A stretch of 64,000 bases of DNA, taken from Dolichospermum sp. DET69. Lineage in GTDB: Bacteria > Cyanobacteriota > Cyanobacteriia > Cyanobacteriales > Nostocaceae. Both the position numbers and the translations under genes were made by a program. The stretch covers positions 1,218,501-1,282,500 of the forward strand of contig CP070233.1 of NCBI GenBank assembly GCA_017355425.1. The letters are read 5' to 3'. How positions within the stretch are numbered: position 1 is the stretch's first letter; each line of letters opens with the position of its first letter. Below, piece after piece: positions 1 through 25,764 of this stretch. A model generated the notes under the pieces. That model saw only the letters and a program-made list of their open reading frames with translations, did not search any database and was not told where the DNA came from.

Positions 1-2478
1 GCGATTTTTACTAAAGCTGGGGCAAATCTCCAAAAAGTCCGAGACCGCACCGAGCAGTTCATTCAACGTCAACCCAAGGTATCTGGTAATAGCACTTCCG
101 TTTATTTAGGACGGAGTTTAGATACACTATTAGATCGGGCAGAAAAATATCGTCAGGAATTTAAAGACGAATATATTTCTATTGAACATTTACTGCTGGG
201 TTACGCCAAAGATGACCGTTTTGGAAAGGGTTTATGCCAAGAATTTGGTTTAGACGAAAACAAACTCAAAAATATTATTAAAGAAATTCGGGGGAAGCAA
301 AAAGTGACAGACCAAAATCCAGAAGGTAAATATCAATCACTGGAGAAGTACGGCCGCGATCTCACAGAAGCCGCCCGCAAAGGTCAATTAGACCCCGTAA
401 TCGGTCGTGATGATGAAATCCGGCGCACGGTACAAATTCTCTCCCGGAGAACTAAAAATAACCCGGTTTTAATTGGTGAACCGGGCGTGGGTAAAACTGC
501 GATCGCCGAAGGTTTAGCACAGCGTATAGTAGCGGGTGATGTTCCCCAATCTCTCAAAGACCGCAAACTGATCAGTTTAGATATGGGGGCTTTAATTGCG
601 GGGGCAAAATTCCGAGGTGAATTTGAAGAACGTCTCAAAGCCGTATTAAAAGAAGTCACAGAATCAGACGGAAATATTGTTTTATTTATTGATGAAATTC
701 ATACTGTTGTCGGTGCAGGTGCAACCCAAGGATCTATGGATGCTGGAAACTTATTAAAACCGATGTTAGCGCGAGGTGAGTTACGCTGTATTGGGGCGAC
801 AACTTTAGACGAATACCGCAAATATTTGGAAAAAGATGCCGCTTTAGAAAGACGCTTTCAACAAGTTTATGTAGATCAGCCCAATGTTGTTGATACAATT
901 TCGATCTTACGCGGTTTGAAAGAACGTTATGAAGTTCATCACGGGGTGAGAATTTCTGATAGTGCTTTAGTTGCTGCGGCTACGTTATCTAATCGTTATA
1001 TTAGCGATCGCTTTCTTCCGGATAAAGCCATTGATTTAGTTGATGAAGCCGCTGCTAGACTGAAAATGGAGATTACATCCAAACCCGAAGAACTAGACGA
1101 AATTGATCGGAAAATTCTCCAATTGGAAATGGAAAAACTCTCTTTACAAAAAGAAAGTGATCCTGCTTCCCGTGAACGGTTAGAAAGATTAGAAAAAGAA
1201 CTCGCAGACCTGAAAGAAGAACAAAGAACTCTCAGCACACAATGGCAATCTGAAAAAGGTATTATCACCAGAATTCAGTCAATTAAAGAAGAAATTGACC
1301 GTGTGAATTTAGAAATTCAACAAGCCCGAAGTGAGAGAAACCAGGATCTCATGAAGGCTTCGGAATTACAGTATGGCAAATTACCAGATTTACAAAACCA
1401 ATTACAAGCCGTAGAAACTGAACTTTCCCACACCCAAGGAACCGGAAAATCTTTACTCAGAGAAGAAGTTACAGAAGCCGATATTGCGGAAATTATTTCT
1501 AAATGGACAGGCATTCCCCTAAATAAATTAGTGGAATCAGAAAAAGAAAAACTTCTACATTTAGAAGATGAATTACATCAGCGGGTTGTCGGTCAACATG
1601 AAGCCGTTACCGCTGTAGCTGATGCCATTCAGCGTTCTCGGGCTGGACTCTCTGACCCTAACCGTCCCATAGCTAGTTTTGTCTTCCTTGGTCCGACAGG
1701 TGTGGGGAAAACTGAACTGGCGAAAGCCTTAGCCTCCTATATGTTCGATACAGAGGAAGCTCTGGTGCGGATTGATATGTCAGAATACATGGAGAAGCAC
1801 GCCGTTTCTCGTTTAATCGGTGCGCCTCCAGGATATATTGGCTATGAAGAAGGAGGACAACTCACTGAAGCTATTCGTCGTCGTCCCTATGCGGTGATTT
1901 TATTCGACGAAATCGAAAAAGCCCACCCCGACGTTTTTAATATTTTCCTGCAAATTCTGGATGATGGCAGGGTAACAGATGCCCAAGGTCGAACGGTAGA
2001 CTTTAAAAATAGTATCATTATCATGACCAGTAATATCGGTTCTCAATACATCCTTGATCTAGCTGGAGATGATAACCGTTACGATGAAATGCGTAATCGA
2101 GTCATGGAAGCGATGCGAAGTAGTTTCCGTCCAGAGTTCTTAAACCGTCTTGATGAATTGATTATTTTCCACAGTTTACAAAAATCGGAATTGCGGCATA
2201 TTGTCCAGTTACAGGTAGATAGGTTAAAACAAAGATTAACCGACAGAAAAATATCCTTGAAATTATCTAGTTCTGCTCTTGACTTTTTAGCAGAAGTAGG
2301 GTATGATCCCGTTTTTGGTGCAAGACCATTAAAAAGAGCGATTCAGCGGGAATTAGAAACCCAAATAGCCAAAGCCATTTTACGCGGTGATTTTAGCGAT
2401 GGTGACACCATTTTTGTAGATATTCAAAATGAGCGTCTTTCCTTTAATCGCTTACCCGCAGAAGTATTTATGGGTTAG
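1..2478 (+). CDS. clpB: ATP-dependent disaggregase ClpB (5' end outside window)
   Basis: The reading frame is open from base 1, so the gene starts upstream; 825 codons are visible against about 870 for the family, so roughly 50 residues are missing. ClpB is a hexameric Hsp100 that pulls proteins out of aggregates together with DnaK. Visible are the end of the Clp N domain, a first AAA+ domain with Walker [14 protein letters not shown] and Walker B LFIDEIHT, a long charged coiled-coil M domain (about positions 1090-1460), and a second AAA+ domain with [13 protein letters not shown] and [13 protein letters not shown]. The M domain separates ClpB from ClpC/ClpA. The GTG at 304 lies inside the frame and is not the true start. 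Confidence 0.97.
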
Positions 2479-2640
2479 GTCATTAGTCATTGGTCATTGG
2501 TCATTGGTCATTGGTCATTGGTCATTGGTCAAATTCCTATCCATGACTAATAACTAATGACTAATAACTAATGACTAATGACTAATAACTAATGACTAAT
2601 AACTAATGACTAATGACTAATAACTAATGACTAATAACTA
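2479..2640. repeat. Heptanucleotide tandem repeats in two opposing blocks
   Basis: Directly after the clpB stop, units of the type GTCATTG/GTCATTA run to about 2530. After an 18-base spacer, units ATGACTA/ATAACTA run to 2640. The second block is the reverse complement of the first, so the pair could fold into a long hairpin. This is the short tandemly repeated repeat type known from Nostocales. The stop codon of the convergent DUF924 gene (2638-2640) lies in the last unit. Confidence 0.9.
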
Positions 2641-9902: not shown

Positions 9903-12900
9903 ATGAAAAGTGAAGATAGTCAACGAGTACAAATATTCCTAGACAAGTGGAAAGGTTCTCAGGGAAATGAAAGAGCAAATTATCAGGGTTTCTTCTTAGA
10001 ACTTTGTGATGCGTTGGCTGTAGATCGTCCAGCACCTAAAGGAAGTATAACAGGCGATCGCTATTGTTTTGATAAAGACATCAAAATATTTAACAAAGAT
10101 GGTGTCACCACAAACTTTGCAGACTTCTACAAAGAAGGACATTTTTTAATTGAAGCCAAACAAGGGGGAAATGCAGCTAAACGCGGTACAGCCAAACGGG
10201 GAACAAAAACCTATGATATCGCCATGGAAAAGGCTTTTTATCAAGCTCAAAGCTATACGCCTTTTGTACCAAGTAAACCGCCTTTTTTGATTACTTGTGA
10301 TATTGGTTCGCATTTTGAAATCTGGGTAAGTTTTAGTGGTAATTATGGCGGTTATGGAGCGCGGGAAAAAATTGATTTAGAACGGCTTTTAGATGAAAAA
10401 GTATTTAATCGTTTCGTTGCTATATTTAATGATCCTCAAAGTCTCAACCCAGAAAAATATCGAGCGCGGGTAACAAGAGAAGTTGCTGATACTTTAGCTA
10501 AGTTAGCGCGGTGGTTGGAAGAACAAGGACACGAACCCCAAGAAGTCGCCAATTTCCTCATGCGCTGTATTTTTACAATGTTTGCGGAAGATGTAAAATT
10601 ATTGAAAGAAAATGTTTTTACTAAAGCCTTAAAAGAGCGTTGGCTTGTTGAACCGAAGACATTTAAACCCCAGATTGAAAAACTTTGGAAGGTGATGAAT
10701 ATTGGCGGAGAATTTAACTTTGATGAAATTCCCCAATTTAATGGCAGCTTTTTTGCCAATGCGACAGCTTTTGATTTACCGAAAGCACAGTTAGAAATCT
10801 TGTATGAAGCCGCAAATAAAGATTGGACTGAAGTAGAACCGGCAATTTTTGGAACATTATTAGAACGGGCTTTAGATAAAAAGGAACGCAAAAGTTTAGG
10901 AGCGCATTACACACCCAGATCCTATGTAGAGCGTTTGGTGCGGCCTGTTGTTATAGAACCTTTGCGAGAAGAATGGTTATTAGTTGAATCGGAAGTTGAT
11001 CGGTTTTTAACTCTCAAGGAAAAACAGCAAAAACCCACAAAAGCACAAACAGAAAAAGCTGAAAATGAGATTAGGGAATTTTTAGTCAAATTACAACAAA
11101 TTCGCATTCTTGATCCGGCTTGTGGTTCGGGAAACTTTTTGTATGTGACCTTAGATTTGATGAAAACATTGGAACAGGAAGTACAAATGCGCTTGCTGGA
11201 TGTTTTAGGTAAGGTAACAACGAATTTATTAGAGGAATTTGATCCGCGTTTGGCTGGGAGAAAACAAATCAATCCAGCGCAATTTTTAGGAATTGAAATT
11301 AATCCTAGAGCGGCTGCTATTGCAGAATTAGTAATTTGGATTGGTTATTTGCAATGGCATTTTAAACGCTATGGAAGTACACCACCACCAGAACCGATTT
11401 TACAGGATTTTCATAATATTGAATTTCGTGATGCGGTGTTAGATTATGATGGCAAGGAGTTAGATATTGATCCCAAAACTGGTAAGGTAAGAACTCGTTG
11501 GGGTGGAAAAATGATCAAGCATCCTGTGACGGGTGAAGATGTTCCAGATTCGAGTGATCAAATTCCTATTTTTCGTTACATTAATCCTCGTCCTGCTAAA
11601 TGGCCAGATGCAGATTATATTGTTTCTAATCCGCCATTTATTGGTAATGCACGAATGAGAGATAGATTAGGAGATGGCTATACAGAAACCTTACGTGAAG
11701 CTTATCTAGATGTACCTGATACTGTAGATTTTGTCATGTATTGGTGGCATAAAGCAGCACAGTTAGCGCAAGATGATAAAGTTGATAAGTTTGCTTTTAT
11801 CTCAACTAATACAATTCAACAAGTTCGACAAAGAAAGATAATTGATTTTTATCTAAATCACAAAAATCCTATTCGGTTAATTTTAGCAATTCCTGATCAT
11901 CCTTGGACTGATGGAGATGCAGGAGTTACTGCTGCTATGACTGGTGCTGAATCAATTAATTCTAAAAGACTTTTAAATATTCCTAAAATTGGTACTTTAG
12001 TCTCACATGAAGAAGGAATAACCCCGGAACATTCGGCAGATAAAATTAATATTCAGTGGAAAAATGTAGAGAAAATTTTCAGTAATCTCCAATCTGGAGC
12101 AGATGTCGCAGGTACTAACAAGCTAAAAGCAAATTCAAAACTTGCTTGTAGAGGAATGGAAATGAGAGGAGCAGGTTTTCTTCTCACACAAGAACAAGCC
12201 CAATTTTTAGGATACACCAAAGACAATGATAATCAGTTACCAGTAATTAAAAGATTTATCAGTGGCAAAGATATTACTGATAAGAATAGAGGTTTATTTA
12301 CAATTGATCTTTGGGGACTTTCTATTAAGCAAGTTCAAGATATTTATCCAGTTATTTATCAATGGATTTATGAAAGAGTTAAACCAGAAAGAGATGTAAA
12401 TAGACGAAAATCATCTCGTGATAGCTGGTGGATTTATGGGGAAGCTAGAGCTACTTTTAGACCAGCACTTAATAATCTAAATAAATATATTGCAACTCCA
12501 AGAACAGCAAAGCATAGATTTTTCATTTTTCTTCCAGCAGATTTCATAACTGAAAGTGAAGTGATTATGATCGCAATTGACGATTCTTACTTTCTCGGTG
12601 TTTTGTCTAGTTATATTCATATTGTTTGGTCATTAGCAGCAGGTGGAGACTTAGGAGGAAATACACCTCGCTATAATAACTCTGTTTGTTTTGATCCTTT
12701 TCCTTTCCCAAATCCCACCCCAGAACAAAAACAGAAAATCCGAGAATTAGGAGAAAGATTAGATTCCCACCGTAAACGAGTGCAAACACAATATCCCGAA
12801 ATCACAATTACCGGAATGTATAACCTGCTAGAAAAACTCCGCAAAGGTGAAACATTTACCGAAGCAGATAAAGCATATAACAATAAAGCCTTAGTTTCCA

Positions 12901-13391
12901 CCCTCAAACAAATTCATGATGAATTAGATAACGCCGTTTTTGATGCTTACCAATGGCAAGATTTAAAAGATAATCAAAAAACAAAAGCAGAAATAGAAGA
13001 AATAATTTTAGAACGATTAGTTAACCTCAACGCTGAACGAGCCGAAGAAGAACGTAACGGGATAATTCGCTGGTTGCGTCCCGAATATCAAGCACCAAAT
13101 GAAACTACCCAACAAGTGCTAACAGAAGTAATGGAAACAGAAGCAACCGTGATTATTCCCAGCGAACAAAAAACCTTTCCCAAAGAACCAAAAGACCAAC
13201 TTGCAACTATCCGCGACTTACTCCGCACAAATAACAATGAGTGGACAGTTGAACAAATTGCTGCTCAATTTAAAAATGGTGGTAGATACAAAAATGCCAT
13301 TGCAGACAACTTAGAACGATTAGAATGGTTTGGGATTTTAATCTGTAGAGAAACAGGAGAAACCAAACACTGGCAATATGTAGAAATATAG
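9903..13391 (+). CDS. MmeI-like type II restriction enzyme/DNA methyltransferase fusion
   Basis: 1162 aa. The N-terminus has a PD-(D/E)XK-type nuclease motif with MmeI-like spacing: Asp74, nine residues, Glu84-Ala-Lys86 (FLIEAKQGG). A helical spacer follows, then an amino-methyltransferase with SAM motif I ILDPACGSGNFLY (about residue 402) and motif IV IVSNPPFIG (about 576). A target recognition region lies downstream (about 750-950). The last 60 residues look like a winged helix (VEQIAAQFKNGGRYKNAIAD). The single-chain layout fits type IIL/IIG enzymes that cut and methylate, MmeI itself being about 920 aa. No separate specificity or helicase gene is adjacent. It seems intact. Confidence 0.88.
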   Translation: MKSEDSQRVQIFLDKWKGSQGNERANYQGFFLELCDALAVDRPAPKGSITGDRYCFDKDIKIFNKDGVTTNFADFYKEGHFLIEAKQGGNAAKRGTAKRGTKTYDIAMEKAFYQAQSYTPFVPSKPPFLITCDIGSHFEIWVSFSGNYGGYGAREKIDLERLLDEKVFNRFVAIFNDPQSLNPEKYRARVTREVADTLAKLARWLEEQGHEPQEVANFLMRCIFTMFAEDVKLLKENVFTKALKERWLVEPKTFKPQIEKLWKVMNIGGEFNFDEIPQFNGSFFANATAFDLPKAQLEILYEAANKDWTEVEPAIFGTLLERALDKKERKSLGAHYTPRSYVERLVRPVVIEPLREEWLLVESEVDRFLTLKEKQQKPTKAQTEKAENEIREFLVKLQQIRILDPACGSGNFLYVTLDLMKTLEQEVQMRLLDVLGKVTTNLLEEFDPRLAGRKQINPAQFLGIEINPRAAAIAELVIWIGYLQWHFKRYGSTPPPEPILQDFHNIEFRDAVLDYDGKELDIDPKTGKVRTRWGGKMIKHPVTGEDVPDSSDQIPIFRYINPRPAKWPDADYIVSNPPFIGNARMRDRLGDGYTETLREAYLDVPDTVDFVMYWWHKAAQLAQDDKVDKFAFISTNTIQQVRQRKIIDFYLNHKNPIRLILAIPDHPWTDGDAGVTAAMTGAESINSKRLLNIPKIGTLVSHEEGITPEHSADKINIQWKNVEKIFSNLQSGADVAGTNKLKANSKLACRGMEMRGAGFLLTQEQAQFLGYTKDNDNQLPVIKRFISGKDITDKNRGLFTIDLWGLSIKQVQDIYPVIYQWIYERVKPERDVNRRKSSRDSWWIYGEARATFRPALNNLNKYIATPRTAKHRFFIFLPADFITESEVIMIAIDDSYFLGVLSSYIHIVWSLAAGGDLGGNTPRYNNSVCFDPFPFPNPTPEQKQKIRELGERLDSHRKRVQTQYPEITITGMYNLLEKLRKGETFTEADKAYNNKALVSTLKQIHDELDNAVFDAYQWQDLKDNQKTKAEIEEIILERLVNLNAERAEEERNGIIRWLRPEYQAPNETTQQVLTEVMETEATVIIPSEQKTFPKEPKDQLATIRDLLRTNNNEWTVEQIAAQFKNGGRYKNAIADNLERLEWFGILICRETGETKHWQYVEI

Positions 13392-18639: not shown

Positions 18640-19101
18640 TTAATTTTAAACCTTTCATTGTCTGAATCAGGATGTCCAGGATTTGAGGATTTACAGGATG
18701 GTAATTTATCATTTTTTATGTGAATGTTTAGATTAGTTTTCTTATCATTGAAAATTCTTGTTATCTGAATCAGGATGTCCAGGATTTGAGGATGTACAGG
18801 ATGGTAGTTTATCATTTTTTATGTGAATGTTTAGATTAGCTTTTCTACTTCTTGTCTGAATCAGGATGTCCAGGATTTGAGGATGTACAGGATGGTAGTT
18901 TATTATTTTTTATGTGAATGTTTAGATTAATTTTCAGACCATTGAAAAATATTCACTACCCATCAACAATTATATCCTGTTAATCCTTTAATCCTGGAAA
19001 TCCTGATTCAGACAATTTCCCATCATAGAAAAAATCCCACATCCCATCAAAAATCAAATCCTGTTAATCCTTTAATCCTGAAAATCCTGATTCAGACAAT
19101 T
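18640..19101. repeat. Repeat field: three 76-bp direct copies and two inverted cores
   Basis: 462 bases without genes. Near-identical 76-bp units beginning TCTGAATCAGGATGTCCAGG and ending in TGTTTAGATTA lie at 18661-18736, 18764-18839 and 18855-18929. Their core appears inverted at 18974-19014 and 19058-19100 (AATCCTTTAATCCTG, AATCCTGATTCAGACAAT). A diverged copy sits at 9806-9846. It lies just downstream of the STAND/WD40 gene. Confidence 0.88.
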
Positions 19102-22100
19102 TCACACACCATCACACAACCGCTTATCCTCCTCACTCAAATCCACATTCGGATTGTGTAAATAATCCTTCAACCAAGCACAACCATCCTTAATTGCCCT
19201 ATCTAAATCCCGCACAGGCCACAACCGCGCTGTATTGTCCCAGGATGCCGTAGCAATGGTTTTACCGTCGGGGCTGAAACTCACACTCCTGACTGTACCC
19301 TGATGCCCTTTAAATTCCTGAATCAATTGCCCCTGCAAGTTCCACAACCGCGCTGTATTGTCCCAGGATGCCGTAGCAATGGTTTTACCGTCGGGGCTGA
19401 AACTCACACTTATGACCCGATCCTGATGCCCTTTAAATTCCTGAATCAATTGCCCCTGCAAGTTCCACAACCGCGCTGTTTTGTCATCGGATGCCGTAGC
19501 AATGGTTTTACCGTCGGGGCTGAAACTCACACTATTGACTGTACCCTGATGCCCTTTAAATTCCTGAATCAATTGCCCCTGCAAGTTCCACAACCGCGCT
19601 GTTTTGTCATCGGATGCCGTAGCAATGGTTTTACCGTCGGGGCTGAAACTCACACTTATGACTGTATCCTGATGCCCTTTAAATTCCTGAATCATTTGCC
19701 CCTGCAAGTTCCACAACCGCGCTGTTTTGTCATCGGATGCCGTAGCAATGGTTTTACCGTCGGGGCTGAAACTCACACTATTGACATCACCCTGATGCCC
19801 TTTAAATTCCTGAATCAATTGCCCCTGCAAGTTCCACAACCGCGCTGTATTGTCCCAGGATGCCGTAGCAATGGTTTTACCGTCGGGGCTGAAACTCACA
19901 CTATTGACATCACCCTGATGCCCTTTAAATTCCTGAATCAATTGCCCCTGCAAGTTCCACAACCGCGCTGTTTTGTCATCGGATGCCGTAGCAATGGTTT
20001 TACCGTCGGGGCTGAAACTCACACTATTGACATCACCCTGATGCCCTTTAAATTCCTGAATCAATTGCCCCTGCAAGTTCCACAACCGCGCTGTTTTGTC
20101 ATCGGATGCCGTAGCAATGGTTTTACCGTCGGGGCTGAAACTCACACTATTGACTGTACCCTGATGCCCTTTAAATTCCTGAATCATTTGCCCCTGCAAG
20201 TTCCACAACCGCGCTGTTTTGTCATCGGATGCCGTAGCAATGGTTTTACCGTCGGGGCTGAAACTCACACTATTGACTGTACCCTGATGCCCTTTAAATT
20301 CCTGAATCAATTGCCCCTGCAAGTTCCACAACCGCGCTGTATTGTCATCGGATGCCGTAGCAATGGTTTTACCGTCGGGGCTGAAACTCACACTTATGAC
20401 ATAACCCTGATGCCCTTTAAATTCCTGAATCAATTGCCCCTGCAAGTTCCACAACCGCGCTGTATTGTCCCAGGATGCCGTAGCAATGGTTTTACCGTCG
20501 GGGCTGAAACTCACACTTATGACCCGATCCTGATGCCCTTTAAATTCCTGAATCAATTGCCCCTGCAAGTTCCACAACCGCGCTGTTTTGTCTGAGGATG
20601 CCGTAGCAATGGTTTTACCGTCGGGGCTGAAACTCACACTTATGACATCACCCTGATGCCCTTTAAATTCCTGAATCAATTGCCCCTGCAAGTTCCACAA
20701 CCGCGCTGTTTTGTCTGAGGATGCCGTAGCAATGGTTTTACCGTCGGGGCTGAAACTCACACTTATGACATCACCCTGATGCCCTTTAAATTGGATACGT
20801 TCTTTTATGTTGTCGAGGATATTATTTAAGGCATAAATAGGGCTAATGGTGGGATATTTATCCAAAGCTTTATTTTTAACTATAGTTTTTAATGTCTTGC
20901 CATTCCGTACAGCAGACACTAAAGATGGTAATTCTTCAAATTGGAATTGTCTTAAAACATTCACTCCACCTTGTTCTAATTTGGTAACTATTAATGCTTC
21001 TTGTTGGGCTTTGAGTGCTGCTTGTTTAGCTGTCTCTGCTTTTTTTAATGCGGCATTTGCTGTTTTAAAGGTTTCTCGCGCTTCCTTAGCTTTATTTTCT
21101 GCTTGTTGTTGTTGTATCTTTGCTTGTTGTGATTTTGTTTCCGCAGTTTTTATATTATCATTAGCTGTTTTAACTTTTAATTCGGCTTCTGTATTTTTTT
21201 GTTTTAGTGTTTCAGCTTGTTTATTTACTGCTTCTAATTTGGTTTTAGCTGCTAATAGATTTTCTCGCGCTTTTTTAGTATTCTGTTCTGCTAACTTAAA
21301 GTTTTTTTCTGCTGTTTGTTTATTTTTCTCTGCTGCTTGAGACTTTTTTTCTGAATCTTGAGTTTGACTTGCTAATTTTTGCGTTTGTGCTCGTAATTCA
21401 GTTTGTTTTCGTTGAGCAACTTTAGTTTCTCTAAGTTGGTTCATACCATAAACAGAAGCCATAGCTGCAATTACTACGAAACTCATAGCTAAACCAGAAC
21501 TTAATTTTAATCTTTTTTGTCCTTCATGAATTTTTTTATCAGCTTGAATTTTAGCATCTGCTAATATTTGTTTTGCTGCTTCTGCTTCCTGTAACTGCTT
21601 TTGAGTTTCTACTAATTTTTGTAATAACTCATTATCCTTTTGACGAATAAACTCCACCAAATAATCATGGACTAATTGATATCTATTTTCTGGAGATTCC
21701 TGAATTAATAATACTAACCCAGATACTACCAATATTTTTAAAACCAAATCTAAATCTTCATTGGTATATGTAGGATTTTTGGGTAGGGGTAATTCATGAA
21801 TTACCCCTACAGCATTTTGCATAAATCCTGTTAAACTTAACTCTTCAGCTAATTCAGCCGAAGTTTTTAAAGGACGAGTGTTATTTTCATTGGTTAAGAG
21901 ATATAAAACCAATTCTGCTAATTTTTGATTTTTTTGTCCACATTCTTGAATAACATCTTGTAAAAAACCTTCAACTAATTTTTCTTTGTTATGAATTTTT
22001 TCTTGATATTTTTCTAAAGTTGTAATTCTTTGGTTTTCTAATTGCGTTCCCACAATTTGTAATTCTATGGGTCTAATTTCGCCGATATTTCCCGCTAGTT

Positions 22101-24348
22101 CTGCTACTAATTTATCTATTAAATCTTTTTGTAAGCTGTATTTGCTTCTTTTGGTTAAACTGGTAAATACTGTTGTCGCATCTGTGGGGGAAAAGTTACC
22201 CAAATAATAACGAATATCTTTACTCAAGATATCTGTATTATTGACAATATCTGTATTTTTTTCATTCGCAAATTTCCGTTCTAATTCTAATAAATAATGT
22301 AAATAATCTTCTCGCAAAGATAGTACAATTTTAACATCATTGGTTATTAAACACCTTCTAAGAAAATCATAAAATGCTTGTCTCTCGGTTTGTTCTTGAT
22401 TTACAAAGAAAAATTCTTCAAATTGGTCAAATATTAAAACCGTTAATAAATTATTGGTGCTATTTTCTACCAATTTTTTAATAATTGCATCTGTAGAACG
22501 TAGGGACAATTCATGAATTGTCCCTACATTTAAAGCCTTTGCTAATTCTCCCAACCAATTATTATAAGACCGTAACAATATGGGTAAAACTTGTTTAGCT
22601 TTAATTGTTTCTTGTTCCAGTGCGGGAATTAAACCAGCTTGTAAAATTGAACTTTTACCCACTCCAGACTGGCCATGAATAACAATTAATCTATATCTAT
22701 CTTCAGCAATTTTACTTCTTAACCGTTTTACATCTTCTTCTCTACCAGAAGCAACTATTTCCTGGGCTATTTCACCAGTATTTTCTTTATCAGAATTTAC
22801 AGATTGAATAATTTTCCGTTGGGGGTTTAAATAAGATGCACCAACAAACGCCCGAAAACTATATTGTTGTTCTATTTGTAATCTTTCTTGTTTGGTATAG
22901 AAAGCTGTTAAATATTCCTCTTGTTGAAAGTAGAGTAAATTTAATTGATTTAAGATATCAATATATAACTGGGGATTATATTCTATTTGGGTGTTGGTTT
23001 TTGCGGTTTCTAATATTTTGATACTGGTTGATATTTCACCCAAGCCATGATAGGATTTAGCCAAGAGAAATTGATAATATACTTGTTCATTTTTGGGAAT
23101 ATGTAAAAACCTCTCTCCAAACCTCTCTCCTACAAGGAGAGAGGCTTTATGATCATTATCTCCTGTTCCCTCTCCTACAAGGAAAGAGGCTTTATGATCA
23201 TTATTTCCTGTTCCCTCTCCTCTTAGGAGAGGGTTAGGGAGAGGTGATTGAATATCATGTAATATTTGTAATGCTGTTTCTGCATGGTTTTTAGCTTCCA
23301 TGAAATTATCTTTATATAAAGCCAGTTCTGCTAAAAAACCATAATCTTTAGCCAGATAATTATTTTGTTGTTGATGTATTATCAAAGATTCATTAACTAA
23401 TTGTTCTAAATCATCCCATGCTTGCAATTTAAGATATACTTCACATAACGAAGTAATGTATTGAAATAATGAATCTTGGTTTTTTGTTTGTTTAAAAATC
23501 TCTAAACTTTGCTGAAAATAATTCCTTGCTTGTTTCCATAAATTTTGATTATCTACCTGATTTATTGAGGCTTTACGGTAGTAGATTAAACCAAGATTAA
23601 CTAACAGTGTACCTTGTCTATCTAAATTGTTACTTTCTTGCCAAAAAATCAAACTCTGTTGATAATGTTCTAAAGCTAAATCTAATTTATCATCTAAATA
23701 ATCACCATAACCAAAAACATATTCTAAACTAGCATTAATAGAGGGGTTTAATAATTCTCCCTGTTGTTCTAAATCTTGTTTTGCAATTGCTAATTCCTGA
23801 CAAAGATGAGAAAAGAGTATATTGGTTATATCACCTGCAAATATTTTATCTGTTTCTTGTTGAATAAAATCAATTAATTGATGACTAGGAGGTTTAAATT
23901 CAATAGTAGTTGCCCAATTTTTAAAATCTGGCGCTAATCTAATTATTTTCTTCAAAACGGCATCATTTACCCAGAAAAATACAGGGAAATTAAAGTTATT
24001 TCTAAACTCTTCCCGCGCTTGGTTAGTTGCAGTTAACACTGCATCAATATTTTGCACTGATTCTAAACCAAAGACCATTAATGCTGATGGTGGTTCATAA
24101 TCTAATTGATATGTCAACTGATCAGCTATATTGGTATATATGGTTTTGATATTTGGTAACAGGTGAATTTTTTTTACTGTTTCTACCTCCTGTAATTTAC
24201 TAAATATTTGTTCTTGAAAAAAGGTGTAATTACAACGTAATAAAATCAGCGAAAATGCGCCATGAGAGAGGGTAATTACTCTGATTAATTTTCTGGAATT
24301 ACCCTCGTTTTCTAAATCTAAATTGTCTGGTTGCTGTTGATTATTCAT
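19102..24348 (-). CDS. Giant STAND-type NTPase with TPR, coiled coil and 13 WD40 repeats
   Basis: 1748 aa. In order: an N-terminal alpha/beta domain (about 20-175, with FFWVNDAVLKKIIRLAPDF) that looks like an inactive ATPase relative; TPR-like helices (about 205-510); a STAND NTPase (about 540-900) with Walker A VIHGQSGVGKSS (about 560) and Walker B VLIFDQFEEFFF (about 640); a helical stretch; one membrane-like span (SGLAMSFVVIAAMASVYGM, about 955-975); a long Ala/Lys/Glu coiled coil (about 980-1130); and 13 WD40 repeats of 41 residues (about 1186-1712), nearly identical except at a few positions. Its ATG overlaps the upstream ATPase stop by 4 bp. The layout fits ligand-sensing signalling or conflict NTPases. 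No known effector domain is visible. Confidence 0.85.
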   Translation of the reverse strand: MNNQQQPDNLDLENEGNSRKLIRVITLSHGAFSLILLRCNYTFFQEQIFSKLQEVETVKKIHLLPNIKTIYTNIADQLTYQLDYEPPSALMVFGLESVQNIDAVLTATNQAREEFRNNFNFPVFFWVNDAVLKKIIRLAPDFKNWATTIEFKPPSHQLIDFIQQETDKIFAGDITNILFSHLCQELAIAKQDLEQQGELLNPSINASLEYVFGYGDYLDDKLDLALEHYQQSLIFWQESNNLDRQGTLLVNLGLIYYRKASINQVDNQNLWKQARNYFQQSLEIFKQTKNQDSLFQYITSLCEVYLKLQAWDDLEQLVNESLIIHQQQNNYLAKDYGFLAELALYKDNFMEAKNHAETALQILHDIQSPLPNPLLRGEGTGNNDHKASFLVGEGTGDNDHKASLLVGERFGERFLHIPKNEQVYYQFLLAKSYHGLGEISTSIKILETAKTNTQIEYNPQLYIDILNQLNLLYFQQEEYLTAFYTKQERLQIEQQYSFRAFVGASYLNPQRKIIQSVNSDKENTGEIAQEIVASGREEDVKRLRSKIAEDRYRLIVIHGQSGVGKSSILQAGLIPALEQETIKAKQVLPILLRSYNNWLGELAKALNVGTIHELSLRSTDAIIKKLVENSTNNLLTVLIFDQFEEFFFVNQEQTERQAFYDFLRRCLITNDVKIVLSLREDYLHYLLELERKFANEKNTDIVNNTDILSKDIRYYLGNFSPTDATTVFTSLTKRSKYSLQKDLIDKLVAELAGNIGEIRPIELQIVGTQLENQRITTLEKYQEKIHNKEKLVEGFLQDVIQECGQKNQKLAELVLYLLTNENNTRPLKTSAELAEELSLTGFMQNAVGVIHELPLPKNPTYTNEDLDLVLKILVVSGLVLLIQESPENRYQLVHDYLVEFIRQKDNELLQKLVETQKQLQEAEAAKQILADAKIQADKKIHEGQKRLKLSSGLAMSFVVIAAMASVYGMNQLRETKVAQRKQTELRAQTQKLASQTQDSEKKSQAAEKNKQTAEKNFKLAEQNTKKARENLLAAKTKLEAVNKQAETLKQKNTEAELKVKTANDNIKTAETKSQQAKIQQQQAENKAKEARETFKTANAALKKAETAKQAALKAQQEALIVTKLEQGGVNVLRQFQFEELPSLVSAVRNGKTLKTIVKNKALDKYPTISPIYALNNILDNIKERIQFKGHQGDVISVSFSPDGKTIATASSDKTARLWNLQGQLIQEFKGHQGDVISVSFSPDGKTIATASSDKTARLWNLQGQLIQEFKGHQDRVISVSFSPDGKTIATASWDNTARLWNLQGQLIQEFKGHQGYVISVSFSPDGKTIATASDDNTARLWNLQGQLIQEFKGHQGTVNSVSFSPDGKTIATASDDKTARLWNLQGQMIQEFKGHQGTVNSVSFSPDGKTIATASDDKTARLWNLQGQLIQEFKGHQGDVNSVSFSPDGKTIATASDDKTARLWNLQGQLIQEFKGHQGDVNSVSFSPDGKTIATASWDNTARLWNLQGQLIQEFKGHQGDVNSVSFSPDGKTIATASDDKTARLWNLQGQMIQEFKGHQDTVISVSFSPDGKTIATASDDKTARLWNLQGQLIQEFKGHQGTVNSVSFSPDGKTIATASDDKTARLWNLQGQLIQEFKGHQDRVISVSFSPDGKTIATASWDNTARLWNLQGQLIQEFKGHQGTVRSVSFSPDGKTIATASWDNTARLWPVRDLDRAIKDGCAWLKDYLHNPNVDLSEEDKRLCDGV
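19194..20793. repeat. Thirteen 123-bp tandem repeats encoding WD40 blades
   Basis: The 123-bp unit is almost identical in every copy, at synonymous sites as well. Differences cluster in two spots: the GHQ-x-x-V-x segment (GDV, DRV, GYV, GTV, DTV with I, N or R after) and the S-x-D-x segment (SSDK, SWDN, SDDN, SDDK). The repetitive open frame on the opposite strand is only a shadow of this. Confidence 0.95.
21784..21809. repeat. 26-bp palindrome inserted in frame in the STAND gene
   Basis: A perfect palindrome built on TAGGGGTAATTCA. In the STAND frame it reads VGVIHELPLP (about residue 850). The type is common between genes in Nostocales. Confidence 0.85.
22501..22526. repeat. Second 26-bp in-frame palindrome in the STAND gene
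   Basis: A perfect palindrome built on TAGGGACAATTCA. It reads VGTIHELSL (about residue 611), inside the NTPase domain between Walker A and Walker B. Confidence 0.85.
23108..23250. repeat. In-frame CTCTCC-type repeat with 45-bp tandem duplication
   Basis: About 143 bases of interspersed repeat inside the TPR part of the STAND gene. Two 45-bp copies (23131-23175 and 23176-23220) encode EGTGDNDHKASLLVG-like units, and the outer part reads SPLPNPLLRGEGTG. Length keeps the frame open. Confidence 0.85.
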
Positions 24349-25664
24349 GACTTAAATTTTGGTGATTCTTGTAAAATTGGATTAATGTCAAACCAAGATA
24401 CATCATTTTCTATATATTCAAAAACAAACAAATCACGAATTAATATATTATATTCTTCATGACCTGCAATGCTTTTAGTTTGTGACACATCCTTTAATAA
24501 TTGCCATTCATCATTATCAATCCCCAGAGATAAGATATTACACTCTTTTCTAATCACTGTTTCTAAGCAGTCACTAGTAATTGGTAGATCATCATTTTGC
24601 AAACAAGTATATAATAAAGATAACAAACTGCGTAAATGACCGCCACTAACTTTACATAGTCTTTCTAAAGTATCCACACTATCAAAAACTTGGGTAATTA
24701 AATCCTGGTTATCTTCCCAGTCATCCCAATTGATCTGAGAATAAGGAAAAGCCCTCACCATGATCATTTTTTGTAAAAGTTTAATTCCTAAAGTAAAATC
24801 AGATTCATCTCTTTGTTTTGCTGCTACCATTGGTAAAACTTTGGGACTGGCATTAAAACGATCTCTCAATCTAGCTAAAGCATTAGAATAGACTAATACT
24901 AAAGGAATTGTATAAACAACATGACATTTTAAACCCTTTAATTTATCACCACGTTCAGCAAAAAGATATTCTGGTTGAAATTGATTATTTGGTTTGAGAG
25001 TATTATCTATTTTATCTAATCCATCAACAATAATTACTAAACCTTTTTTACCTTGCTGTTTGAGTTTTTCTTGGGCAGTTTGAATGATGTCTTGATTAAT
25101 AGAGTCTAAAATTCCATTAGTCCGTGGTTCTAAACATTGTTTTACTTGACTACGACTTTTATCATTCTCTCTGGTTTTCGCGGTAATTTTAGCAATGCCT
25201 AAAGATAATTCGGCTTCTAAATCTATATCAATGGGAGTTGTGAAAAGGTCAGATACTTCTTTAAACAAATTTTTAAAATATCCAGGTTTAACATTAATTT
25301 TAACTGCTGCTAAACTTTTGCTGACTTCTCCAGCTATAGCTAATAAAATATCTGTAATATCAACATCTGCCATGTCTAAACTTTGGCTAGACTCAAAATA
25401 GACTACATGAAAATCCTCCTGTTCTAATTCTGCTTTTAATCTCAGTAATTCTGTAGATTTACCGCAACCAATATGTCCTGTAAATAATTGACAGGTCGGA
25501 TCTTCAGGTGATATTCTAGCGATCGCCCGTCTTAATTGATCAATAACTTTTGCACCACGAACTTGAGAAAAATCAATATAATATTGTCTATCTTCAGCTT
25601 TCCCTATTACTAGCGTCTTAGAAGGGTTGCAAGCCTGAAAAAACCTTGTTATGCCCAGTTTCAT
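24345..25664 (-). CDS. P-loop ATPase partner of the STAND protein
   Basis: 439 aa from ATG 25664 (MKLGITRFFQACNPSK); an in-frame GTG at 25688 is less likely. Walker A is FTGHIGCGKSTEL (about residue 70) and Walker B is GLVIIVDGLDKI (about 215), with the arrangement of an AAA/KAP-like signalling ATPase. The C-terminal third is helical, with RLCKVSGGHLRSLLSLLYTC resembling a sensor/winged region. The stop overlaps the STAND start (ATGA), so the two proteins are made together. I know such ATPase-plus-TPR/STAND pairs from filamentous cyanobacteria, but not a proven function. Confidence 0.8.
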   Translation of the reverse strand: MKLGITRFFQACNPSKTLVIGKAEDRQYYIDFSQVRGAKVIDQLRRAIARISPEDPTCQLFTGHIGCGKSTELLRLKAELEQEDFHVVYFESSQSLDMADVDITDILLAIAGEVSKSLAAVKINVKPGYFKNLFKEVSDLFTTPIDIDLEAELSLGIAKITAKTRENDKSRSQVKQCLEPRTNGILDSINQDIIQTAQEKLKQQGKKGLVIIVDGLDKIDNTLKPNNQFQPEYLFAERGDKLKGLKCHVVYTIPLVLVYSNALARLRDRFNASPKVLPMVAAKQRDESDFTLGIKLLQKMIMVRAFPYSQINWDDWEDNQDLITQVFDSVDTLERLCKVSGGHLRSLLSLLYTCLQNDDLPITSDCLETVIRKECNILSLGIDNDEWQLLKDVSQTKSIAGHEEYNILIRDLFVFEYIENDVSWFDINPILQESPKFKS

Positions 25665-25764
25665 GGTAAATTGCCTGAAAATAATCACTATCTCAGTAAT
25701 TATACAGAAAATGATAGGATTAAGCTAGAAAACAAGAGATTAAAAATCTAGAATCCATTTGCGT

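What the first reader, a model, noticed from the sequence alone, without database searches (positions are those of the whole stretch)
19102..25664. Two-gene STAND ATPase/WD40 module with self-similar, hypervariable recognition repeats
Seen: an ATPase gene is translationally coupled (ATGA) to a 1748-aa protein with an inactive-looking N-terminal domain, TPRs, a STAND NTPase, a membrane-like span, a coiled coil and 13 nearly identical 41-aa WD40 repeats. The variable residues concentrate at repeat positions 4, 5, 7, 23 and 25. Known: fungal HET-E/HET-D NWD receptors and predicted NTP-dependent conflict systems of multicellular bacteria show the same mix of concerted evolution and surface hypervariability. 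Inference: a sensor of rapidly changing ligands, perhaps antiviral or allorecognition-like, with the paired ATPase or membrane span as output. No known effector domain is present, so the output is open.
Basis: partly seen in the sequence, partly recalled or inferred. Interest (0 to 1): 0.78.

Follow-up and report, generated by a model that had tools for sequence, protein, structure and literature searches.

The report
Bacterial NLR-like receptor with variable propeller
A filamentous cyanobacterium carries a two-gene receptor-like module whose sensor, a chain of 13 almost identical propeller blades, varies at the blade positions that are positively selected in fungal non-self recognition genes, and related species swap its whole sensor half, which suggests a bacterial receptor for fast-changing, possibly foreign, molecules.

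Summary
Gene 19102-24348(-) encodes 1748 aa with 13 WD40 repeats; gene 24345-25664(-) is an AAA+/KAP/STAND-type ATPase overlapping it by ATGA. All 225 differences between repeat pairs (core 32 columns) change the residue and lie at columns 6, 7, 9, 25, 27. Columns 7, 9, 25, 27 are the codons published as positively selected in the Podospora het-d/het-e family. In 15 highly repetitive family arrays pN is 0.450 at those four codons, 0.038 elsewhere, pS 0.152.
In 8 pairs of related modules (ATPase 95-98.6% identical) such arrays keep the frame (0.88-0.99 identity) but not the variable residues (0.13-0.48, like shuffled order); 6 pairs with ordinary arrays largely keep both. At a syntenic Nostoc locus about 850 N-terminal aa stay 80-95% identical while the C-terminal half is WD40 or CHASE2. 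Three of 16 genus genomes have the module at this site.
Best reading: a membrane-linked NLR-like receptor with a constant ATPase/N-domain core and a diversifying sensor. Highly repetitive cyanobacterial STAND-WD40 proteins are known (WRAP), so this is a new variant of a known kind. Ligand and output are unproven; no known effector domain was found.

The parts
24345..25664 (-). partner ATPase, 439 aa, Walker A-like GHIGCGKS, Walker B-like LVIIVDGLDK (motif names recalled); passes Pfam's cut-off for KAP_NTPase; AAA+/STAND-type fold in the model
19102..24348 (-). 1748-aa receptor-like protein
23815..24348 (-). N-terminal alpha/beta domain (aa 1-178), no Walker A-like motif seen, no Pfam family; relatives also occur as stand-alone genes
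22858..23814 (-). TPR-like superhelix (aa 179-497)
23098..23244 (-). in-frame insert from an interspersed repeat (aa 369-417), low model confidence (likely disordered)
21649..22821 (-). nSTAND1 NTPase and winged-helix-like end (aa 510-900)
21439..21504 (-). membrane-like segment (aa 949-970)
20944..21438 (-). coiled-coil-like K/Q/E/A-rich region (aa 970-1135)
   Evidence: read from sequence
19192..20790 (-). 13 WD40 repeats of 41 aa (aa 1187-1719); variable columns 6, 7, 9, 25, 27
19102..19191 (-). C-terminal tail (aa 1720-1748), similar in relatives
18668..25734 (.). about 7.07-kb segment absent at the empty site of a congeneric genome (L202), where about 115 bp lie instead

Best explanation
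A two-gene, NLR-like receptor with a constant core and a diversifying sensor. The 13 blades should fold as two adjoining propellers (for example 7+6). The four or five variable residues per blade line one face and form a combinatorial binding surface. Ligand binding would release the nSTAND1 switch, which oligomerises with ATP. The N-terminal domain and TPRs would then engage the partner ATPase, encoded just upstream and translationally coupled, which builds the output complex. Diversity has two sources: reassortment of near-identical repeats under selection at the face residues, and exchange of the C-terminal half (WD40, CHASE2, unnamed domains) shortly after the STAND part. Shown by sequence: architecture, variability pattern, turnover between relatives, exchange of C-terminal halves, presence/absence. 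Inferred: propeller geometry, switch mechanism, ATPase recruitment by the N-domain. Conjectural: that ligands are non-self (phage or foreign cells), and that the sensor lies outside the cytoplasm. The output is unknown.
For: nSTAND1 E 1.4e-30; the N-half model matches plant resistosome and NB-ARC structures, ranked below archaeal ATPases and LGN TPRs. ATPase model pLDDT 88.7 matches ORC/Cdc6, archaeal ATPases 2qen and 2fna, TnsC and CED-4 at E 1e-6 to 1e-3 with low TM-scores of 0.25-0.54. Pairing: 81 of 100 loci examined (73 after removing duplicates) have the big gene beside the ATPase, 78 of the 81 with the N-half aligned. A Calothrix plasmid has two tandem ATPases and a big gene with two N-domains, which fits an ATPase/N-domain partnership. 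pN 0.450 at codons 7, 9, 25, 27 versus 0.038 at the other 28 and pS 0.152 in 15 arrays; the window's four most variable columns are exactly those four. The same codons are published as positively selected in fungi. Turnover: 8 repetitive pairs have face identity 0.13-0.48, like shuffled order, versus 0.72-1.00 in 6 ordinary pairs. C-terminal exchange: CHASE2 (E 3.5e-66) versus WD40 after about 850 conserved aa at a syntenic locus. At this site in 3 of 16 genus genomes. Also on conjugative plasmids.
Against: No known effector domain; no functional test exists. Adjoining genes are housekeeping-like. 36 of 54 complete WD40 members are not scored as highly repetitive, so diversification is not universal in the family. 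Repeats of one array are not independent and gene conversion distorts pN/pS. Local pS is also raised at codons 7, 9 and 25 (0.30, 0.40, 0.22), probably from averaging over multi-step codon paths, since few same-residue pairs there differ in codon. 4 of 15 arrays share only two of their four most variable columns with the fungal set. 6 of 8 short stand-alone N-domain genes have no ATPase of this family nearby, and profiles show no kinship of N-domain and ATPase. Against an outside sensor: 19 of 56 WD40 modules have no segment at the chosen hydropathy threshold, including L086 with a highly repetitive array; the window's flanks hardly differ (5 versus 4 K+R).
Confidence: 0.6

Rival explanations
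1. Scaffold or housekeeping signalling protein whose propeller was amplified recently; the variable sites are simply the unconstrained loop positions, drifting neutrally.
For: Recent amplification or homogenisation is clear (no synonymous differences). Highly repetitive WD40 proteins with diverse hotspot sites are reported widely in prokaryotes (passages).
Against: Under neutrality pN at free sites should not exceed pS; it is about three times the overall pS over 15 arrays, though only about 1.4 to 2.6 times the local pS at those codons. Many alternatives in one codon are two or three bases apart (277 of 384 codon pairs). Frame and face behave oppositely between species.
Confidence: 0.2
2. Environmental or cell-envelope sensor (osmotic, polymer, light, symbiosis) rather than a defence or recognition receptor; CHASE2 and WD40 are alternative extracytoplasmic input domains.
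For: CHASE2 in 2 of 61 complete modules, described in print as an extracellular sensory domain (passage). K+R counts around the membrane segment are higher on the N side in 28 of 37 modules, on the C side in 1, equal in 8.
Against: Residue-level diversification with complete turnover between close species is not what I would expect of an environmental sensor (general knowledge).
Confidence: 0.22
3. Kin or allorecognition between filaments, directly comparable to heterokaryon incompatibility.
For: Same diversified codons as the het-d/het-e family; presence at this site and C-terminal type vary among congeneric genomes.
Against: No polymorphic partner ligand was looked for or found; no cell fusion is known in these organisms (recalled).
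Confidence: 0.15
4. Variation is made by a diversity-generating retroelement or another targeted mutator.
For: Differences are confined to a few codons.
Against: No template-like copy was found: outside this gene the best repeat match in the genome is 51% identical over about 80 aa, apart from a 27-residue piece at 67% in a tail remnant of a second module. Within an array identical residues at codons 9 and 25 always use one codon (551 of 551 pairs in 15 arrays), whereas random mutagenesis should give several.
Confidence: 0.03

Closest known systems
[quoted passage not shown]
   Same: STAND ATPase with 14 near-identical C-terminal WD40 blades without synonymous changes; neighbour gene is another STAND ATPase; immunity role proposed in print (passages). 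The best match in Nostoc CHAB 5824 also has a membrane-like and a coiled-coil-like part, read by eye
   Different: Partner carries TIR (sometimes caspase); N-half and partner show no BLAST relation to the window's, only a 52-aa pre-array stretch (E 2.6e-5) besides the propeller and tail
Podospora anserina NWD/HNWD genes (het-d, het-e, het-r)
   Same: STAND protein with near-identical WD40 repeats; codons 7, 9, 25, 27 diversified; reshuffling of repeats (passages)
   Different: NACHT rather than nSTAND1; HET effector absent here; exchange between family members in fungi, but no second similar full array in this genome
Highly-repetitive prokaryotic WD40 proteins (Hu et al. 2017, PMC5587647)
   Same: High internal identity with diverse interaction hotspots (passages)
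   Different: General survey; the passages seen do not describe this module, its exchange of C-terminal halves or turnover between orthologues
NTP-dependent conflict systems of multicellular bacteria (Kaur et al. 2020, PMC7159879; and PMC8195603)
   Same: STAND or inactive STAND modules, variable parts, frequent in multicellular cyanobacteria (passages)
   Different: No MoxR or vWA gene beside this module and no effector domain found
DGR-diversified STAND sensors (PMC10907252)
   Same: STAND NTPase with a targeted variable sensor in multicellular bacteria (passages)
   Different: C-type lectin sensor and reverse transcriptase; here tandem repeats and no template copy found

Membership tests
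STAND NTPase (nSTAND1, PF20703) | STAND NTPase domain above the family cut-off | tested here: met
   107.6 bits against cut-off 27.1; G559, G562, G564, K565, S566 invariant in 49 aligned rows
STAND NTPase (nSTAND1, PF20703) | STAND/NLR-like fold with winged helix | tested here: met
   AF2 model, Foldseek hits to ZAR1 and NRC4 resistosomes, NB-ARC; archaeal ORC and Walker-type ATPases rank higher, and TM-scores over the whole model are low
KAP NTPase (PF07693), for the partner ATPase | score above Pfam's cut-off | tested here: met
   28.4 bits against 20 over residues 47-228; ATPase_2, AAA_16 and AAA_22 are below their cut-offs. No solved KAP relative was identified
Bacterial antiphage NLR (Avs, bNACHT) | N-terminal effector enzyme | tested here: not met
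   No Pfam match for the window N-domain; PADLOC gives only repeat-region or weak matches
Bacterial antiphage NLR (Avs, bNACHT) | Protects against phage | not testable with these tools
   needs phage challenge
Fungal NWD/HNWD receptors | codons 7, 9, 25, 27 diversified in near-identical WD40 repeats | tested here: met
   published positions
Fungal NWD/HNWD receptors | NACHT plus HET domain | tested here: not met
   nSTAND1 is the best match, NACHT is below its cut-off, no HET domain listed for the array-free part
WRAP TIR-STAND / STAND-propeller operon | near-identical C-terminal WD40 array on a STAND protein | tested here: met
WRAP TIR-STAND / STAND-propeller operon | partner with TIR or caspase | tested here: not met
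   no TIR or caspase match in the partner; BLAST to the TIR-STAND protein best E 0.07
MoxR-vWA ternary conflict systems | MoxR and vWA genes beside it | tested here: not met
   the five flanking genes scanned are RuBisCO activase-like, lysozyme-like, LigT, YciI and glycosyltransferase
MoxR-vWA ternary conflict systems | inactive STAND domain | tested here: inconclusive
   N-domain is alpha/beta without a Walker A-like motif but has no family match and no profile match to the ATPase
Diversity-generating retroelement target | template copy of the variable region in the genome | tested here: not met
   no other repeat above 51% aa identity except a 27-residue piece at 67% in a module remnant; reverse transcriptase itself was not searched for

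The most novel reading that the evidence does not exclude
Filamentous cyanobacteria run a polymorphic receptor system with a fixed signalling core (ATPase, orphan N-domain, TPR, STAND) and two layers of sensor variation: exchange of the whole C-terminal half near one junction, and combinatorial reassortment of blade residues at the same positions that fungi use, with the sensor placed outside the cytoplasm. It would be a residue-level convergence with fungal allorecognition and a bacterial repertoire of non-self receptors.
Probability: 0.35. Interest if true: 0.9.

Novelty: new variant of a known kind. Interest (0 to 1): 0.72.

Why it matters
It ties a proposed but, as far as I saw, untested idea, that repetitive bacterial propellers are immune-type receptors, to a quantitative signature: the codons diversified in fungal non-self genes are diversified here, turn over between close species, and sit on exchangeable C-terminal halves. 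Ligand specificity becomes directly testable by blade and half swaps in laboratory cyanobacteria. The N-domain at the other end has no Pfam family and may link the receptor to its ATPase.

Tried and rejected
Diversity-generating retroelement: judged unlikely, no template-like copy found and one codon per residue at codons 9 and 25. I did not search for a reverse transcriptase.

N-domain as a relative of the partner ATPase: not supported; no Pfam match for the window's N-domain and only scattered weak ones among 18 members; no PDB sequence match (best E 0.26). The 50 listed rows of the PDB fold search of the N-half are TPR, ORC/ATPase and STAND/NLR-type structures, so the N-domain fold stays unassigned.

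Strain-level comparison of the window's own array: not possible in full. The nearest orthologue G002 (ATPase 98%) ends at its contig end inside the first repeat; its 28 visible residues differ from the window's first repeat at columns 7, 9 and 27 only. The other, G012 (96%), stops matching at aa 330, about 50 bp from its contig end. A tail in G002 that looked orthologous lies beside the genes of a second locus and was not used. I compared other orthologous pairs instead. I chose those 14 pairs by hand from the list; some share members, L092 contains unresolved bases, and both arrays of L044/L096 are open.

Exchange of repeats between genes of this genome: no evidence, no second similar full array.

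PADLOC matches of the ATPase (PDC-S20 in 28 of 29, mad8 in 25 of 29 members, best E 7.7e-7) are weak and read as generic P-loop similarity. Solved-structure sequence search of the ATPase gave nothing below E 0.1.

Not found in print: residue-level selection at codons 7, 9, 25, 27 in bacterial STAND-WD40 proteins, or WD40/CHASE2 exchange on one STAND core, in the searches. The library lacks most subscription papers, and Dunin-Horkawicz et al. 2014 was seen only as cited.

Full report
What is there. On the minus strand, gene 24345-25664 (ATPase, 439 aa from the ATG shared with most aligned homologues; the GTG version of 447 aa reaches 25688) overlaps gene 19102-24348 (1748 aa) by ATGA. The long protein has an alpha/beta N-terminal domain without a Walker A-like motif, TPR-like helices, nSTAND1 (E 1.4e-30), a membrane-like segment from aa 949, a coiled-coil-like region, 13 WD40 units of 41 aa and a tail. 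The organism is Dolichospermum-like (Nostocales): the nearest named loci are Dolichospermum sp. ST_sed8 and UHCC 0259.

Repeats. Between the 13 units, 225 codon-pair differences fall in the 32 core columns. All change the amino acid and all lie in columns 6, 7, 9, 25 and 27 (F of FKGHQ = 1); none is synonymous. Alternatives in one codon are often two or three bases apart, for example GAT, ACA, TAT and CGG at column 7. In the 6.04-Mb genome the best repeat match outside this gene is 51% identical over about 80 aa, apart from a 27-residue piece at 67% in a tail remnant of a second module. So homogenisation seems to be within the gene. The DNA array has period 123, 12.8 copies, score 2700.

Selection-like pattern. 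Published work on the Podospora NWD family, which includes het-d and het-e, reports codons 7, 9, 25 and 27, flanking conserved positions 8 and 26, as positively selected and located on top of the propeller in a homology model (PMC1805685 and PMC2873952, passages). The frame is the same here: V is 8 and D is 26. With those four codons taken from the papers, 15 family arrays with at least 80% internal identity (of 37 arrays with six or more detected units) give pN 0.450 at the four, 0.038 at the other 28, pS 0.152 overall. Local pS is higher at codons 7, 9 and 25 (0.30, 0.40, 0.22). The window's four most variable columns are exactly the four; 11 of 15 arrays share at least three, the other 4 share two. 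Arrays are related and repeats are not independent, so this is a pattern, not a formal test. Hu et al. 2017 already noted diverse hotspot sites in highly repetitive prokaryotic WD40 proteins (PMC5587647, passages).

Turnover. I compared 14 hand-picked pairs of related modules whose ATPases are 95-99% identical (face = columns 6, 7, 9, 25, 27). In the 8 pairs with highly repetitive arrays, non-face identity is 0.88-0.99 but face identity only 0.13-0.48, no better than with unit order shuffled (P 0.23-0.84). One of these pairs has unresolved bases (L092), and one has both arrays open at contig ends. In the 6 pairs with ordinary arrays, face identity is 0.72-1.00 (P 0.000-0.075). Detected repeat numbers differ in some repetitive pairs, for example 14 and 13, 9 and 7. 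For the window itself, the partial first repeat of G002 (28 residues, ATPase 98% identical) differs at columns 7, 9 and 27 and nowhere else; the residues just before the repeat differ too.

Exchange of C-terminal halves. The ATPase search found matches in 124 of 150 relatives. Of 100 loci examined (20; the best 80 of 530 confirmed), 81 hold ATPase plus big gene on one strand within about 1.2 kb, 73 after removing duplicates; 78 of the 81 align over the N-half. Of 61 complete ones, 54 have WD40, 2 CHASE2, 5 other C-termini (loose motif counting). In a group of mostly Nostoc loci sharing upstream neighbours (18 and 15 loci in two neighbour clusters), L088 (CHASE2, E 3.5e-66) and L086 (13 repeats) are 91.6% identical in DNA over the first 2544 bases, with no further match; L088 and L091 are 89.3% identical to base 2625. 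At protein level the first 800 aa are 80-95% identical per 100-aa block in these two comparisons, then fall to 11-28%. L098 and L106, in the same clusters, are an exception: L098 is only 41-81% identical to L088 already in the N-half. In Dolichospermum, L049 (unnamed C-terminus) and L115 (WD40) are 95.6-97% identical to base 2724 of L049 and then stop matching; their synteny was not shown. The junction is about 30-60 residues past the start of the YQLVHDYL motif in the Nostoc pairs, and further on, past the membrane segment, in L049/L115.

Insertion. In the genus, 3 of 16 genomes (own, G002, G012) have the ATPase next to YciI at this site. In L202 window positions 18667 and 25735 are about 115 bp apart; L205, L206 and L208 also keep LigT next to YciI; seven further loci have the lysozyme-like gene near YciI but no LigT or module; L203 and L215 show neither and were not resolved. 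On plasmids 9 records match the ATPase, 8 of them cyanobacterial, 7 at 46-60% identity. Of five opened, three (L228, L229, L232) have a big gene with N-domain and STAND homology downstream. L228 and L229 are on conjugative plasmids, L229 beside recombinases, HicAB and a NACHT protein. No phage record matched.

Core. Eight loci with short stand-alone N-domain genes (157-168 aa) were fetched: two have an ATPase of this family beside them (L216, L223), six do not (L217-L222). Four loci with N-domain proteins of 212-556 aa all have one (L224-L227). The Calothrix plasmid L232 has two tandem ATPases and a big gene with two N-domains. The N-domain profile matches 30 of 117 genomes of the phylum. The ATPase passes Pfam's cut-off for KAP_NTPase (28.4 against 20 bits); its AlphaFold2 model is nearest, with low TM-scores, to ORC/Cdc6, archaeal ATPases, TnsC and CED-4. 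I infer that ATPase plus N-domain is the output core to which the TPR-STAND-sensor part was added; the six unpaired N-domain genes speak against a strict pairing.

Topology. 37 of 56 WD40 modules have a membrane-like segment (hydropathy 1.6 or more) after the STAND part. Positive residues are more frequent on the N side in 28, on the C side in 1, equal in 8, which would put the array outside. CHASE2 is described as extracellular (passage). But 19 of 56 lack the segment, including L086, and the window's own flanks are nearly balanced (5 against 4).

Comparison with WRAP. The best WRAP match in Nostoc sp. CHAB 5824 (L174) lies in a 1229-aa STAND-membrane-coil-propeller protein, next to a TIR-like plus STAND protein of 511 aa (TIR, membrane and coil parts read by eye). 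BLAST finds no relation between N-halves or partners (best E 0.07), only a 52-aa pre-array stretch (E 2.6e-5) beyond the propeller and tail. So a similar sensor half sits on two different STAND cores.

Neighbourhood. Flanking genes are RuBisCO activase-like, lysozyme-like, LigT, YciI and a glycosyltransferase. A type IIG restriction-methylation gene lies at 9903-13391 and a PDC-M37B/DolB-like protein at 304-2478; 7 of the 10 window proteins scanned and 3 of 3 flanking ones have no match. This is a weak link to defence.

Verdict. An NLR-like receptor with a diversifying sensor is the best reading. The kind is known from WRAP; the core and the two-level variation are new here as far as my searches reach. 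Function, ligand and output remain to be shown.

Noticed in passing
window 23098-23244: An interspersed repeat found at many places in the genus genomes is inserted in frame in the TPR region (45-bp unit, 2.2 copies) and has low model confidence, likely a disordered loop.
   Followed up: partly
window 18757-18929: 91-bp unit repeated 1.9 times just downstream of the receptor gene; DNA related to this downstream stretch matches many places in the genus genomes.
   Followed up: no
G000 C1:262493-263830 and C1:1564643-1565488 (L038, L039): Two ATPase paralogues (48% and 32%) with N-domain/TPR partners of 542 and 522 aa without a STAND match by BLAST; L038's partner ends just where the STAND region would begin.
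   Followed up: partly
L081 4656-4850: A 64-aa remnant of the tail of a second module, beside genes of the sizes that flank that locus in a congener.
   Followed up: partly
L216, L223: ATPase followed by a stand-alone N-domain gene of about 160 aa, without any sensor half beside it.
   Followed up: partly
L232 8001-15091: Calothrix plasmid with two tandem ATPases (60% and 39%) and a big gene carrying two N-domains before one STAND.
   Followed up: partly
window 9903-13391: Type IIG restriction enzyme-methyltransferase (PADLOC 1364 bits).
   Followed up: no
window 304-2478: 724-aa protein similar to PDC-M37B and DolB defence candidates (E 4e-47).
   Followed up: no
window 2478-2531 and 2543-2641: Heptanucleotide tandem repeats.
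   Followed up: no
window 19303-20595 (+): A 430-aa open frame antisense to the WD40 array, explained by the array period being a multiple of three.
   Followed up: no
15 family arrays, columns 9 and 25: The same residue mostly uses the same codon across species (Leu at column 9 is TTA in 10 of 10 arrays that have it), which may point to a shared pool of codon alleles; codon bias not excluded.
   Followed up: partly
L230 4207-7131: A remote ATPase relative (24.7%, E 2e-6) lies within a SAV_2336-related protein next to a MoxR ATPase gene on a Nostoc plasmid.
   Followed up: no
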